Translations under genes and position numbers: made by a program
Notes under the pieces: model-generated
What the model saw: the letters and a program-made list of their open reading frames with translations, nothing else
The model's database searches: none
Told to the model about the DNA's origin: nothing
Shown: in pieces, positions 48,712-64,000 of the stretch
Position numbering within the stretch: the first letter of the stretch is position 1
Layout: each line of letters begins with the position of its first letter
NCBI RefSeq assembly: GCF_001436695.1
Contig: NZ_AYZG01000007.1
Location: 1 to 64,000, forward strand
Direction: 5' to 3'
Source: Lactobacillus taiwanensis DSM 21401
GTDB lineage: Bacteria; Bacillota; Bacilli; Lactobacillales; Lactobacillaceae
Length of the DNA: 64,000 bases

Positions 48712-49533
48712 ATGACTATTGGAGAAGCATTAAAAAGAGAAAGAGAAAGTTTAGGATTGACTCAAGAAGAAATGACGAAGAATGTTATTCAAAAGAGTCA
48801 TTATTCTAAAATAGAGCGCAATATTGAAGGAATTTCAGCAGATAGTTTGTTTAAAATTCTGTTTGCACATCATATTGATGTTGATGAATTTTTAGAAAGT
48901 ATAAAAGATACATATACTTCTAAAGAAGATGTTACAGCCGGCTTATTAGAAAAAAGGATGATGAATGCTTTTAATACTTCAAATACTGAAGCAGTCAAGA
49001 AATGTTTAGCAGAAATTCTTGAATTGGATGAAAATCTTATTTTTAAATATCGTGCGCTCATCGCTGTTGCTACCTTTGACGGGAATTTGGATCAATTAAG
49101 CGAAAATACAAGAAAAAATATAGTTAAAAAATTCAACGATTTTAACAACTGGGTGGAAAATATCGATTCATTACGTTTGTTAGCTAATTGTATGTCTGTA
49201 TTTACTCAAGCGCAATTAGATAATAATATAGATTATTTATTAAATTATTATAGAAAAAAAGATGATCATCCAGAAATAAAAATAGAAAGAGTAGCAATTA
49301 TTTGCAATAACTATTTATATTATTGTTATTATTCTGATGTTAATGGAGATAATATAAAAAAGTGTTTAGATTATTTAAAGAATTTACCTAAGAATATCCA
49401 TTTTCTTTTTTATCATATTAGCTGTAATTTTTATACTAACTTATTTAACGGAAATAAAAAAGAGGCAATAGATATAAAGGAATCACTATGTAAATGGGGA
49501 TATGAAAACAGAGTTAAAAGTTGGAAAGTGTAA
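48712..49533 (+). CDS. Rgg/RopB-like transcriptional regulator (first of three)
   Basis: Cytosolic regulator of 273 residues with an N-terminal XRE helix-turn-helix (MTIGEALKRERESLGLTQEE then SHYSKIERNIEG) and a helical repeat domain that in Rgg proteins binds a short peptide. ATG 48712 is chosen because the two paralogues begin in the same way; GAGG lies upstream. An 822-bp gene followed directly by a perfect 9-bp inverted repeat and an MFS efflux gene. A -10 TATAAT at about 48650 is likely its promoter. The peptide partner is unknown. Confidence 0.88.
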   Translation: MTIGEALKRERESLGLTQEEMTKNVIQKSHYSKIERNIEGISADSLFKILFAHHIDVDEFLESIKDTYTSKEDVTAGLLEKRMMNAFNTSNTEAVKKCLAEILELDENLIFKYRALIAVATFDGNLDQLSENTRKNIVKKFNDFNNWVENIDSLRLLANCMSVFTQAQLDNNIDYLLNYYRKKDDHPEIKIERVAIICNNYLYYCYYSDVNGDNIKKCLDYLKNLPKNIHFLFYHISCNFYTNLFNGNKKEAIDIKESLCKWGYENRVKSWKV

Positions 49534-60107: not shown

Positions 60108-61754
<1,647 letters not shown>

Positions 61755-61796
61755 TTTAGAAACTAATTACGTTTACTAATTTAATAGATTGATAAA

Positions 61797-61832
61797 ACAC
61801 TCCATGATTTTTGATGATCATGGAGTGTTTTT
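61797..61832 (+). terminator. Terminator after groEL
   Basis: Arms ACACTCCATGAT and ATCATGGAGTGT with an eight-base loop and T5 tail. Confidence 0.9.
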
Positions 61833-61902
61833 GTATAGTAGAGTATAATATCTTAATAAAAAATTAAACTGTGATTTTTCATTAAGAAAGAAGATGACAG
61901 GG

Positions 61903-62730
61903 ATGACTATTGGCGAAGCTTTAAAAGAAACTAGAAAAAATCTAGGATTATCTCAAACTGAGATGGCGTATCCTATTCTGACAAAATCGTATTATTCTAA
62001 AATTGAACGAGGAATTCATGAGATTAATGCCAGTGATTTAATTAAGATTTTAGAGATGCATGACATTGATATTAGTGAATTTCTGACAAAATGCGGGGTT
62101 AAGGATAATAGAATTGATAAAGAATATTGGGGAGAGCAGTTAAGCCGGGCATACTATGATCAAGACTTGAATAAGGTTAAAGAATTAGAATTAGAAATAC
62201 CAAATATTAAAACAGATAACTATACTAAAGATCTTTTAAAATCGATGATTATTCTGAATAAGGCAAATTTAAAGGGAAGTATAGATACCTTACCTAATGA
62301 AATAAAAAAACATGTTAAATCTCTAATTTTCAAAGCAGAAAATTGGAATAAAGAAAATCTTAGTTTATTCTCAATCAGTCTTCCTTTATGGTCAGATCAA
62401 GAAATGAAACCAATAGTAACATCTCTTTTGAAAAAATATATTAATATTGAAAACTTTCCACGAGAGATGCAAATTTTAGTTTCTTCAATAATGGTTAATT
62501 ATCTGTCCCTATTGATTCGATCATCATCACAAAATTTAGACTTAGTAGAAGATATATTCATTTTATTAGATAATTTATCAGTAAAACCATTAAACTGCTT
62601 TGGAAAAATAATGAAAAATTTTTATCGAGCATATTTTCAAGGCGATGAGAAAAAAATACAGGATATCCTAGACTTTTTTACTAACAATAATATGAATAAA
62701 ATTTCTGAAATTTTAAGGGTGTCAATTTAG
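61903..62730 (+). CDS. Rgg/RopB-like transcriptional regulator (third of three)
   Basis: Product of 275 residues with the same design: XRE helix-turn-helix (MTIGEALKETRKNLGLSQTE, then SYYSKIERGIHE) and a helical repeat domain. ATG 61903 matches the paralogues' starts; an ATG three codons upstream (61894) is possible. It is more diverged from the other two than they are from each other. It opens a cassette with a small membrane protein, a tiny peptide gene and an ABC exporter, all co-directional. Confidence 0.85.
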   Translation: MTIGEALKETRKNLGLSQTEMAYPILTKSYYSKIERGIHEINASDLIKILEMHDIDISEFLTKCGVKDNRIDKEYWGEQLSRAYYDQDLNKVKELELEIPNIKTDNYTKDLLKSMIILNKANLKGSIDTLPNEIKKHVKSLIFKAENWNKENLSLFSISLPLWSDQEMKPIVTSLLKKYINIENFPREMQILVSSIMVNYLSLLIRSSSQNLDLVEDIFILLDNLSVKPLNCFGKIMKNFYRAYFQGDEKKIQDILDFFTNNNMNKISEILRVSI

Positions 62731-62739
62731 ACACTTTTT
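62717..62739 (+). terminator. Hairpin at the end of the third Rgg gene
   Basis: Arms GGGTGTC and GACACTT (perfect GTGTC/GACAC) span the stop codon and are followed by a T5 tract, so it may terminate the Rgg mRNA. Confidence 0.65.
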
Positions 62740-62885
62740 ATTTTGCACTAAAAATGTGAGTAAAATGATAAATATAAAAAATAATTGTCTGTAAATATAA
62801 TCATTTTCATAATCAGATTTATATGGATTTGAATTGGAACATGACATATAGTTTTCATATTTTACAATAATGGAATGAGTTACGT
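62731..62885. other. Spacer with sequence shared with the second Rgg module
   Basis: AAATGATAAATATAAA (62763-62778) is identical to 52744-52759 in the spacer after the second Rgg gene, and both copies are followed within 20 bases by TGTAAATAT. In both places this opens a nine-codon frame starting MINI. A loose inverted repeat GAAC ... GTTTTC occurs at about 62837-62856. Confidence 0.4.
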
Positions 62886-63125
62886 ATGAATAACCAATTT
62901 CAATTTTATCTTATAATACTATCAATAATCGTGAGTTTTATTCTCTATTATATTATTCGACCAAGAATTCCAATTTTATACGAAGCGTTAGTATGTACTT
63001 ATGTAACTTTATTTTGTCTGTATTTGGTAATACAAGGAAAATACATCTTATTAATCGGTGTAGCTATTTTTACTGTGTTGTCTATTTACTATTGGAAAAA
63101 ATATTATACTAAAAAAAGTAACTAA
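62886..63125 (+). CDS. Small membrane protein in the third Rgg cassette
   Basis: Product of 79 residues, mostly hydrophobic, with three short helices (about 5-24, 30-50, 53-69) and a basic Lys/Tyr-rich C-terminus. I do not recognise the family. The ribosome site is weak (GGAATGAG). Its size and place before a peptide gene and ABC exporter would suit an immunity or accessory protein, but this is only contextual. Confidence 0.55.
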   Translation: MNNQFQFYLIILSIIVSFILYYIIRPRIPILYEALVCTYVTLFCLYLVIQGKYILLIGVAIFTVLSIYYWKKYYTKKSN

Positions 63126-63226
63126 TTCTTCAAATAATAAATTTTGGATTAATTAATCTTTTTAATAAAAAACACATTTTATTATAGTATAATTTAATAA
63201 AATATTTAAATAAGGAGGATTAAATT
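63126..63226 (+). promoter_or_regulatory. Promoter region of the 16-residue peptide gene
   Basis: TATAAT at 63188-63193 has no good -35, suggesting activator dependence. An inverted repeat AATAAAA-AACACA-TTTTATT (about 63164-63183) lies where the -35 would be and could be an Rgg site. The ribosome site AAGGAGGA at 63212-63219 is close to ideal. Confidence 0.5.
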
Positions 63227-63277
63227 ATGCCGACAGTAGTATTAAATGCTCATCAAAATTTACAAAACAATAAATAA
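63227..63277 (+). CDS. 16-residue peptide, candidate signal or modified-peptide precursor
   Basis: MPTVVLNAHQNLQNNK followed by TAA, seven bases after AAGGAGGA, the strongest ribosome site in the cassette. It has no signal peptide, no Cys and one His. It stands between an Rgg regulator and an ABC exporter, and is separated from the exporter by a hairpin (ATGAGCGGA 63281-63289 / TCCGTTCAT 63316-63324), as precursor genes often are. Function is unknown; it could also be a leader peptide controlling the exporter. Confidence 0.5.
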   Translation: MPTVVLNAHQNLQNNK

Positions 63278-63280
63278 TAG

Positions 63281-63324
63281 ATGAGCGGAGAATAGTTACA
63301 ATTCATTTTGTTGAATCCGTTCAT
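63281..63324 (+). promoter_or_regulatory. Hairpin between peptide gene and ABC exporter
   Basis: Nine-base-pair stem with one G-U pair, with an inner GAAT/ATTC stem. There is no U tract, so it may stabilise the peptide mRNA end or limit read-through rather than terminate. Confidence 0.45.
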
Positions 63325-63337
63325 CAAGGAGGACAAA

Positions 63338-64000
63338 ATGAAACATTTACAAAAATTAAACCAATACTTCAACGAATTAACTAGAACTTATCGTCTGTTC
63401 TTCAAATCGGCCCCTTTAGTTGCCACGTGTGTCTTATTACTTGCGCCACTTCAAGCTGTAATTCCTCTACTTGCTGTGGCAGCAGGGCAAAAGGTAATTG
63501 ATCAAGTTACTAATCATTCACCTTTTATGGAAATGATCATTGTATGGATTGTAGCTACTGCGTTTCAACAATTTTTACCATCCCTTTCGACGATGGTTCA
63601 AGGAGTTCTAACAGATAAGTTAACAGGCTTCATCAATATTAGCTTGATGAAAAAATCTGAAGATTTGCAATCAATCAGTATTTTTGATGACAGCAAATAT
63701 TTTGATGATTTACAAATGCTCAGAGATGATGCAAGCTGGCGTCCAGTTAATTTAATTGTTTTTGGTGTATCAGTTTTGCAATCGTTTCTAACGCTAGCTT
63801 TTATGCTAATCTATCTAGCACGATACAATTAGTGGCTGGCATTGCTCTTATTAATTGTAATGGTGCCACAGAGTATTTCTTACTACCGTATTCAGCAGCA
63901 GTCATTTGAAACAATGGTTGAAAGAAGCAAGAATGCGAGATATCTACATTACTATAGTAGTTTGTTGTTAGATCGCAGGGATGCTAAAGAAGTTAGACTT
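63338..64000 (+). pseudogene. ABC exporter (membrane plus ATPase type), amber codon, truncated by window end
   Basis: The ATG at 63338 follows AAGGAGGAC. The first 164 residues form the N-terminal half of an ABC exporter membrane domain (helices at about 20-45, 58-80, 135-158). TAG at 63830-63832 interrupts the frame, which then continues in register to the window end with WLALLLLIVMVPQSISYYRI and RYLHYYSSLLLDRRDAKEVR. The rest, including the ATPase domain, should lie beyond 64000. Either it is inactivated, or the amber codon is read through. Confidence 0.8.

What the first reader, a model, noticed from the sequence alone, without database searches (positions are those of the whole stretch)
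61903..64000. Rgg3, tiny peptide and ABC exporter cassette
A third Rgg-like regulator is followed by a small membrane protein, a 16-codon gene with the best ribosome site in the area (AAGGAGGA), a hairpin, and an ABC exporter. The Rgg-peptide-exporter order is the plan of peptide signalling or small modified-peptide systems. The peptide (MPTVVLNAHQNLQNNK) matches no class I know and has no leader, Cys or Gly-Gly motif. The exporter has an in-frame TAG, so this strain may carry a broken copy.
Basis: partly seen in the sequence, partly recalled or inferred. Interest (0 to 1): 0.72.

Follow-up and report, generated by a model that had tools for sequence, protein, structure and literature searches.

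The report
Ribosome-stalling switch controls an ABC exporter
The tiny 16-codon gene looks like a sensor that a ribosome reads rather than a signal peptide: if the ribosome gets stuck on it, the messenger RNA is predicted to refold and switch on the pump gene next door, the same logic that turns on classic antibiotic-resistance genes.

Summary
The 16-codon ORF is conserved: 11 of 75 Lactobacillus genomes searched have it, always 16 codons, always directly before the same ABC exporter. Rgg3 is optional: 4 of the 11 have it next door, 6 do not, 1 is cut by a contig end. ORF and spacer form an ermC-like translation attenuator. At rest, leader codons pair with the bases after the stop (1:2) and an 11-12-bp helix (3:4) buries the exporter's start codon. 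A ribosome paused in the leader blocks 1:2, lets 2:3 form and frees the start; one at the stop codon leaves it closed. Of 1000 shuffles, 2 do all three; fold z-score -3.5. Covariation is thin, and two carriers deviate. Most likely job: inducible export triggered by ribosome-stalling compounds; the inducer is inferred. This strain's exporter has an in-frame TAG; 9 of 10 full-length matches at 87% identity or more (the tenth is this strain) have no stop. Beyond the window lies a class I lanthipeptide cluster with its own Rgg.

The parts
61903..62730 (+). Rgg3, Rgg/GadR/MutR-family regulator; optional neighbour, not part of the core unit (an upstream in-frame ATG lies at 61894)
   Evidence: TIGR01716 E 6e-13; upstream of the leader in 4 of 11 carriers, frameshifted in one of these, G046
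62715..62738 (+). terminator-like site overlapping the end of rgg3 (GTGTCAATTTAGACAC + T tract)
   Evidence: one of 2 terminator-like sites in 61800-63500; shuffles give 0.4 on average
62886..63125 (+). 79-aa membrane-like ORF that travels with Rgg3
   Evidence: seen with Rgg3 in G000, G006, G037 and G046; no family above cut-off
63188..63193 (+). -10 element TATAAT of the leader-exporter transcript (inferred); no good -35
   Evidence: TATAAT present in all 11 upstream regions; the two-hexamer scan did not report a + strand promoter here
63212..63218 (+). Shine-Dalgarno of the leader ORF (AAGGAGG)
   Evidence: sequence
63227..63277 (+). leader peptide ORF MPTVVLNAHQNLQNNK (16 codons + TAA); consensus M-x-x-V-V-x-x-A-H-Q-[ND]-x-Q-x-x-[KR]
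   Evidence: 11 of 75 genomes, 11 sequences compared
63247..63254 (+). segment 1 (UGCUCAUC, leader codons 7-10)
   Evidence: pairs with segment 2: 97.5% of cells paired over 10 aligned carriers
63280..63288 (+). segment 2 (GAUGAGCGG), starting inside the second stop codon
   Evidence: pairs with segment 1 or with 63317-63325; the nine 2:3 pairs are formed in 100% of cells, 10 aligned carriers
63302..63325 (+). segment 3 (UUCAUUUUGUUGAAUCCGUUCAUC): first part pairs with the exporter start region (3:4), last part with segment 2 (2:3)
63326..63342 (+). segment 4: exporter Shine-Dalgarno (63326-63332, partly paired) and start codon (63338-63340), closed by 3:4
   Evidence: AUG unpaired probability 0.00 in resting RNA, 0.28 and 0.55 with a ribosome at codon 5 and 9
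63338..64000 (+). ABC exporter (permease-ATPase half transporter, 587 codons, continues to G000:C3:65101), interrupted here by TAG at 63830-63832
   Evidence: of 10 full-length matches at 87% identity or more, this one has the stop and 9 have none

Best explanation
The 16-codon ORF plus its spacer is a leader-peptide translation attenuator for the ABC exporter. Resting state: helices 1:2 and 3:4 form, 3:4 hides the exporter's start codon and part of its ribosome-binding site, and little exporter is made. A ribosome that finishes the leader and waits at its stop codon leaves 3:4 closed. A ribosome stalled with its P site anywhere from about codon 4 to 13 covers segment 1, so segment 2 pairs with segment 3, segment 4 is freed and the exporter is translated. 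Shown by computation: conservation of the ORF, the mutually exclusive helices, the predicted switch. Inferred: that the leader is translated, that a ribosome-targeting drug (or another cause of stalling) is the trigger, and that the exporter pumps a related toxic compound. In this strain the output gene is interrupted by a nonsense codon.
For: Leader conserved in 11 of 75 genus genomes, in all 11 beside the exporter and 16 codons long; pooled pN/pS 0.59 over non-independent pairs. One copy per genome. On 10 aligned carriers, 97.8% of 227 cells of 1:2 + 3:4 and 94.6% of 130 cells of the 2:3 fold (100% in its main helix, 82.5% in its inner helix) are standard pairs, against 40-55% and 25-53% when slid by 1-3 columns. 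One 3:4 pair is A-U in 5, U-A in 3 and unpaired in 2 sequences. Free energy -30.4 kcal/mol against a shuffled mean of -19.15, z -3.47, 1 of 200 shuffles as good. Ribosome masking in the window sequence: P(2:3) goes from 0.00 to 0.99 and P(3:4) from 1.00 to 0.01 for P-site codons 4-13. With a ribosome at the stop the start codon is closed in 11 of 11; with one at codon 5 it is open (0.28-0.60) in 10 of 11. Of 1000 dinucleotide shuffles 2 meet all three conditions; of 62 mechanical ORFs of the window tested with the same mask positions one does, and it is the exporter. No terminator-like site in the leader, so control would be at translation.
Against: No experiment shows translation, stalling or induction. 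Covariation is thin: one pair changes on both sides, 36 of 500 shuffles have at least as many such cells and 462 of 500 as many such pairs; the 2:3 fold has only one-sided changes and does no better than any of its 500 shuffles. Exceptions: in G016 segment 1 mismatches segment 2 and the resting RNA is already open (0.53); G011 is partly open at rest (0.30); in G013 a ribosome at codon 5 or 9 barely opens the start (0.03). The folding uses an assumed transcript start and an assumed 31-nt ribosome mask. Conserved Val-Val and Ala-His-Gln codons lie partly in predicted helices, so peptide and RNA constraint cannot be cleanly separated. G012 keeps an 88% identical exporter without the leader.
Confidence: 0.82

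Rival explanations
1. The 16-mer is an exported pheromone read by Rgg3 and secreted by the adjacent exporter.
For: Order Rgg3 - small ORF - 16-mer - exporter in the window. In other species the same exporter family lies after an Rgg gene with a tiny hydrophobic ORF: G012 MYPLFPF, G021 MDPWYPL, G048 MWEWEFPVLP.
Against: 6 of 11 carriers of the 16-mer have no Rgg upstream of it and 1 cannot be told. The peptide is polar, has no recognisable leader, and is unlike the 7-10-residue hydrophobic ORFs beside related Rggs. The leader has its own conserved TATAAT downstream of the terminator-like site of Rgg3. A distant Rgg acting on it is not excluded.
Confidence: 0.05
2. The 16-mer is itself the cargo (a leaderless bacteriocin or RiPP core) and the hairpin only tunes transcript stability.
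For: Strong ribosome site, conservation, exporter next door.
Against: No modification enzyme in the unit: after the exporter comes mutS in 6 of 11 carriers and a second Rgg gene in 5; a lanthipeptide cluster follows that second Rgg in 2 of them, with its own precursor. The RNA refolds over the exporter start codon, which a simple cargo gene does not need.
Confidence: 0.05
3. It is a leader-peptide attenuator, but it senses amino-acid or tRNA supply rather than a drug: slow decoding of particular codons pauses the ribosome.
For: Any pause at codons 4-13 is predicted to open the switch; codons GTA-GTA, CAT-CAA and the second CAA are identical in all 11.
Against: No run of codons for one amino acid, and the target is an exporter with no evident link to amino-acid synthesis; no direct test.
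Confidence: 0.12

Closest known systems
ermC-type translation attenuation (erm, cat, cmlA, fexA, tetQ leaders; review PMC5418344, passages read)
   Same: Short leader ORF, alternative folds, target ribosome site or start hidden until a ribosome stalls, no terminator needed. The 1:2/3:4 versus 2:3 naming is recalled.
   Different: Leader sequence unlike those printed in the passages read (MsrDL, MefAL, ErmDL) and unlike the ErmCL and ErmAL1 leaders recalled from memory; compared by eye only. Target is an ABC half-exporter at a chromosomal groEL-mutS locus of Lactobacillus; inducer unknown.
Attenuated ABC genes (bmrCD, vmlR, lmo0919, msrD)
   Same: ABC-family targets controlled by attenuation in the mRNA leader (msrD).
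   Different: Those act by transcription termination; no terminator-like site was found here. MsrD is a ribosome-acting ABC-F protein, not an exporter; the same for vmlR and lmo0919 is recalled.
ABC-leader of L. gasseri and L. johnsonii, Naville and Gautheret 2010 (PMC2965389, passages and section 9 read)
   Same: An RNA leader before a multidrug export system in the same species group.
   Different: Described as a premature terminator with antiterminator before an operon; the locus is not named in the text read, and figures and supplements were not available. Here there is no terminator-like site, and the one L. johnsonii genome held (ATCC 33200) lacks the element, so probably a different locus, not proven.
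Rgg/leaderless communication peptide (LCP) systems (PMC10518010: abstract, section 6 part 1 and passages read)
   Same: Rgg-family gene near an ABC transporter; the paper lists ABC transporters and RiPP clusters among likely LCP targets.
   Different: Most LCPs are 8-10 hydrophobic residues beside the receptor; the 16-mer is polar and goes with the exporter, not with Rgg.

Membership tests
Leader-peptide translation attenuator (ermC type) | short upstream ORF with its own ribosome site, conserved as an ORF | tested here: met
   11 of 75 genomes, 16 codons in all; a stop is kept where 3 bases are missing in G046 and G071. Translation itself not shown
Leader-peptide translation attenuator (ermC type) | mutually exclusive helices 1:2 + 3:4 versus 2:3 | tested here: met
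   by prediction and pair counts; covariation thin; G016 breaks two 1:2 pairs
Leader-peptide translation attenuator (ermC type) | target start region hidden in 3:4 at rest | tested here: met
   AUG unpaired probability prints as 0.00 in 9 of 11 resting RNAs; 0.30 in G011 and 0.53 in G016
Leader-peptide translation attenuator (ermC type) | a ribosome stalled in the leader, but not one at its stop, opens the target | tested here: met
   in silico only: open with a ribosome at codon 5 in 10 of 11 (one of these, G016, is already open at rest; G013 fails), closed at stop in 11 of 11
Leader-peptide translation attenuator (ermC type) | drug-dependent ribosome stalling in the leader | not testable with these tools
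   needs toeprinting, reporters or ribosome profiling
Rgg/SHP or Rgg/LCP peptide signalling | peptide gene beside its Rgg receptor gene | tested here: not met
   6 of 11 carriers of the 16-mer have no Rgg upstream of it; two of the 11 (G000, G037) and three more (G046, G071, G002) have a second Rgg after the exporter
Rgg/SHP or Rgg/LCP peptide signalling | hydrophobic ultrashort peptide, or cleavable hydrophobic propeptide | tested here: not met
   MPTVVLNAHQNLQNNK and variants are polar, 16 residues, judged by eye
Rgg/SHP or Rgg/LCP peptide signalling | peptide binds Rgg and changes transcription | not testable with these tools
   needs binding and reporter assays
RiPP or leaderless bacteriocin cassette | modification, processing or immunity genes in the unit | tested here: not met
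   core unit is leader + exporter, then mutS (6 of 11) or a second Rgg gene (5 of 11); the lanthipeptide cluster in G000 and G037 comes after that Rgg and has its own precursor in G000

The most novel reading that the evidence does not exclude
A new class of arrest peptide (M-x-x-V-V-x-x-A-H-Q) senses a specific compound in the ribosome of gut and vaginal lactobacilli and switches on its exporter by translation, and the same exporter is alternatively wired in sister species to Rgg with a leaderless signal peptide: one pump, two interchangeable control systems. The conserved Ala8 would fit stalling by drugs of the chloramphenicol or oxazolidinone kind with the P site at codon 9.
Probability: 0.3. 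Interest if true: 0.68.

Novelty: new member of a known kind. Interest (0 to 1): 0.52.

Why it matters
Lactobacilli are food and probiotic bacteria whose intrinsic, inducible drug responses are poorly known (general knowledge). A chromosomal exporter under an ermC-like switch, with an apparent swap between two control systems in sister species, gives a compact and directly testable sensor. It also warns that a tiny ORF before an exporter need not be a pheromone or a bacteriocin: the RNA around it should be folded first.

Tried and rejected
Rgg pheromone model: judged unlikely from the distribution of the peptide. RiPP or leaderless bacteriocin: no enzyme in the unit. Known RNA family: six sub-threshold Rfam matches in 61700-64000, none over the leader. 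Plasmid or phage copies: 5 plasmid records (Borreliella) and 1 phage record match only query bases 7-60 and 9-47, the promoter and ribosome-site part up to the first codons. Nine further genus genomes match only that part and were not counted as carriers (20 of 75 reported, 11 counted). Solved structures gave general ABC transporters (best 60 of 290 at E 1e-20 seen) and, for Rgg3, distant Rgg/MutR and PrgX-type regulators. The exporter has no specific NCBIfam name: only the 419 residues after the stop were scanned and the best 25 of 195 families were shown, none above its cut-off; Pfam on the 164 residues before the stop found only a weak TRIC match. The leader was not found outside the genus: 301 family genomes, 6 matches, all in the genus, with the stricter filters that such a search uses. 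G071 was left out of alignments A1 and A2 (10 of 11 carriers aligned) but is.
Full report
What is there. The window is contig C3 of an unnamed 1.87-Mb genome, by its relatives of the Lactobacillus gasseri/johnsonii group (inferred); named records with the same exporter include L. hominis, L. johnsonii ATCC 33200 and L. psittaci. Beyond the window the exporter frame runs on to C3:65101 with its ATPase part complete. Of 10 full-length matches at 87% identity or more, this one has the stop and 9 have none. The copy in G002, seen in two pieces, also looks damaged by an internal deletion.

The tiny ORF is real and belongs to the exporter. A search of 75 genus genomes with 176 bases around it found 11 full matches and 9 that cover only the promoter and ribosome-site part. 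A covariance model found the same 11, one per genome, and none outside the genus among 301 family genomes. All 11 sit directly before the exporter. All 11 ORFs have 16 codons, with consensus M-x-x-V-V-x-x-A-H-Q-[ND]-x-Q-x-x-[KR] and pooled pN/pS 0.59 over non-independent pairs. Among the 20 of 61 sampled genus genomes with an exporter match at E 1e-60 or better, 10 have the leader. Of the 11 matches at 83% identity or more only G012 (L. johnsonii ATCC 33200) lacks it, and none of the more distant ones has it. One search drew 61 genomes, so G071 was seen only in the fuller searches.

Rgg3 is optional. It lies upstream of the leader in G000, G006, G037 and G046, where it is frameshifted. It is absent there in G002, G013, G016 and G055 (leader directly after groEL) and in G011 and G031 (after a gene for a protein with an LPQTG-type C-terminus). 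G071 is cut by a contig end. Rgg3 ends in a terminator-like site (62715-62738), and a TATAAT lies before the leader in all 11 (63188 here). After the exporter comes mutS in 6 of 11 (G006, G011, G013, G016, G031, G055) and a second Rgg gene in 5 of 11 (G000, G002, G037, G046, G071). So the 16-mer is not tied to one Rgg.

The RNA is a switch. Folding ten carriers showed a repeated pattern in nine of them (G016 differs, and the lowest-energy fold of G011 changes with the stretch folded). Leader codons 7-10 (63247-63254) pair with the bases right after the first stop codon (63280-63287). Separately, an 11-12-bp helix pairs 63301/2-63312 with 63332-63342 and so buries the exporter AUG, while 63316-63318 clips its Shine-Dalgarno. 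The alternative helix joins 63280-63288 to 63317-63325 and cannot coexist with 1:2 or with the 63316-63318 pairing next to 3:4, and it is predicted to exclude 3:4. On the alignment of 10 carriers, 97.8% of 227 cells of 1:2 + 3:4 are standard pairs, against 40-55% when slid; the 2:3 fold has 94.6% of 130 cells paired, against 25-53% when slid, with 100% in its nine-pair main helix and 82.5% in a four-pair inner helix. Covariation is limited: one 3:4 pair is A-U in five, U-A in three and mismatched in two sequences, 36 of 500 shuffles have as many such cells, and 2:3 does no better than its shuffles. The window sequence folds at -30.4 kcal/mol, z -3.47, 1 of 200 shuffles as good.

What a ribosome would do. 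I masked 31 nt for a ribosome with its P site at each codon in six carriers. In the window sequence, pauses at codons 4-13 move P(2:3) from 0.00 to 0.99 and P(3:4) from 1.00 to 0.01; a pause at codons 14-17, including termination, leaves 3:4 closed. Over all 11 carriers the start codon is closed in the resting RNA in 9, closed with a ribosome at the stop in 11, and open (0.28-0.60) with one at codon 5 in 10. Exceptions: G016 is open at rest (0.53), G011 partly so (0.30), and G013 stays shut (0.03). As a null, 68 of 1000 dinucleotide shuffles were closed at rest, 5 of these opened with a ribosome at codon 6, and 2 closed again at the stop. Of 62 mechanical ORFs of at least 100 aa in the window, tested with the same mask positions, one behaved so, and it is the exporter. 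No terminator-like site lies in the leader, so the control would act on translation.

Most likely working. This is the ermC scheme: completed leader translation keeps the gene off, and stalling turns it on. The review PMC5418344 (passages) lists translation attenuators for erm, cat, cmlA, fexA and tetQ, and transcription attenuators for the ABC genes bmrCD, vmlR and lmo0919. The trigger is inferred to be a ribosome-targeting compound, and the exporter to pump it or something related. A lead: chloramphenicol and linezolid stall ribosomes best with alanine in the penultimate position of the nascent chain, shown for chloramphenicol also in Lactobacillus plantarum (PMC8987054, passages). The invariant Ala8 would place such a stall at P-site codon 9, inside the opening range. 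The Val4-Val5 pair recalls the IAVV motif of the ErmAL1 leader, but that motif is from memory; a look for it in one paper gave nothing. Both conserved stretches lie partly in predicted helices, so this is a lead, not a result.

What it is probably not. Not an Rgg pheromone: wrong company, wrong chemistry. Not a RiPP: no enzyme in the unit. The class I lanthipeptide cluster downstream (precursor-like ORF, LanB-like Lant_dehydr_N E 1.7e-60, LanC-like E 5.9e-44, two ABC transporters) follows the second Rgg and its own tiny ORF. Among the neighbourhoods listed it is seen in G000 and G037 only, with LanB in pieces in G037. That second Rgg shows a helix-turn-helix match but no Rgg_C or TIGR01716 match; I call it Rgg-like by its size and layout.

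Some relatives of this exporter do sit after an Rgg gene. In G012 the order is Rgg - tiny ORF MYPLFPF - a 223-229-aa protein with no Pfam match - exporter. G048 has two Rgg genes, one broken, MWEWEFPVLP, a broken relative of that protein (50% over 68 residues) and the exporter; G021 has Rgg, MDPWYPL and the exporter; G020 has Rgg and a split exporter without a tiny ORF. In another genus, G272 has a regulator that resembles Rgg3 only in its first 98 residues (28%), a 217-aa relative of the same protein (37% over 222 residues, E 4e-47) and the exporter. The tiny hydrophobic ORFs match the leaderless communication peptide idea of PMC10518010 (abstract, section 6 part 1 and passages read), which names ABC transporters and RiPP clusters among likely targets. 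At this locus no such ORF with a good ribosome site follows Rgg3. The exporter thus seems to have changed controller between sister species.

Novelty. The mechanism is known; the leader, the target and the organism appear new. Searches of the paper library for leader peptide or attenuation with Lactobacillus, gasseri, ABC transporter or exporter listed nothing on this locus in the rows shown (1 of 1, 4 of 4, 15 of 55, 15 of 44). The one near match is an ABC-leader in L. gasseri and L. johnsonii described as a premature terminator before a multidrug export operon (PMC2965389). It is probably another locus, because this one has no terminator-like site and is missing in the one L. johnsonii genome held, but its figure and supplement were not available.

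Noticed in passing
L006:4280-12267 (G000:C3:66159-74146), just beyond the window: Class I lanthipeptide cluster before mutS: after an Rgg-like gene (L006:3364-4194) come a tiny ORF MIIVTLPVLPKSN, a precursor-like ORF MKELNLDVEKFDLADNLEVILEANGVTSTGCCNGPSKLQG, LanB-like, LanC-like and two ABC transporters.
   Followed up: partly
window 48712-49533 and after (tiny ORF at about 49619); L006, L008, L009; relatives L037, L041, L042, L110, L113, L114, L115: Of 18 Rgg-type genes examined (6 in this genome; a truncated one on C27 left out), 11 are followed 66-110 bases after their end by a 7-13-residue proline-containing ORF with at least 4 of 6 Shine-Dalgarno bases: MFIPCYPL, MYPTIPNF, MIWEVPIIIN, MIIVTLPVLPKSN, MYPLFPF, MWEWEFPVLP, MDPWYPL, MYPWFPL, MFIPWYPL, MGPCFPL, MFIPWYLL; in a few cases another short ORF scores as well. 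Of 63 window ORFs, 1 has such an ORF behind it, and that one is an Rgg gene. Candidate leaderless signal peptides, many with a P-W/C/L-Y/F-P core.
   Followed up: partly
L037 722 to 33 bases before the exporter (L054:8279-8968); L139:4565-5218 on the reverse complement: A 217-229-aa protein family with no Pfam match, ending in N-P-x-N-W or P-E-N-W, sits directly before this exporter in two genera (37% identity over 222 residues); possibly the exporter's partner.
   Followed up: partly
window 62715-62738 and after other rgg genes: Several Rgg genes end in a palindrome of the TGTCA-n-TGACA or TGTTA-n-TAACA kind followed by T; it reads as a terminator but could double as an operator.
   Followed up: no
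L109 after rgg (G000:C33) and L116 (G006): Another Rgg gene is followed by a small membrane-like ORF and no tiny proline-containing ORF, like Rgg3 and its 79-aa neighbour.
   Followed up: no
L045 292-1673 (G002): The exporter behind an intact leader is in two shorter frames that lack an internal stretch, so a second carrier seems to have lost it; the record is a metagenome assembly.
   Followed up: partly
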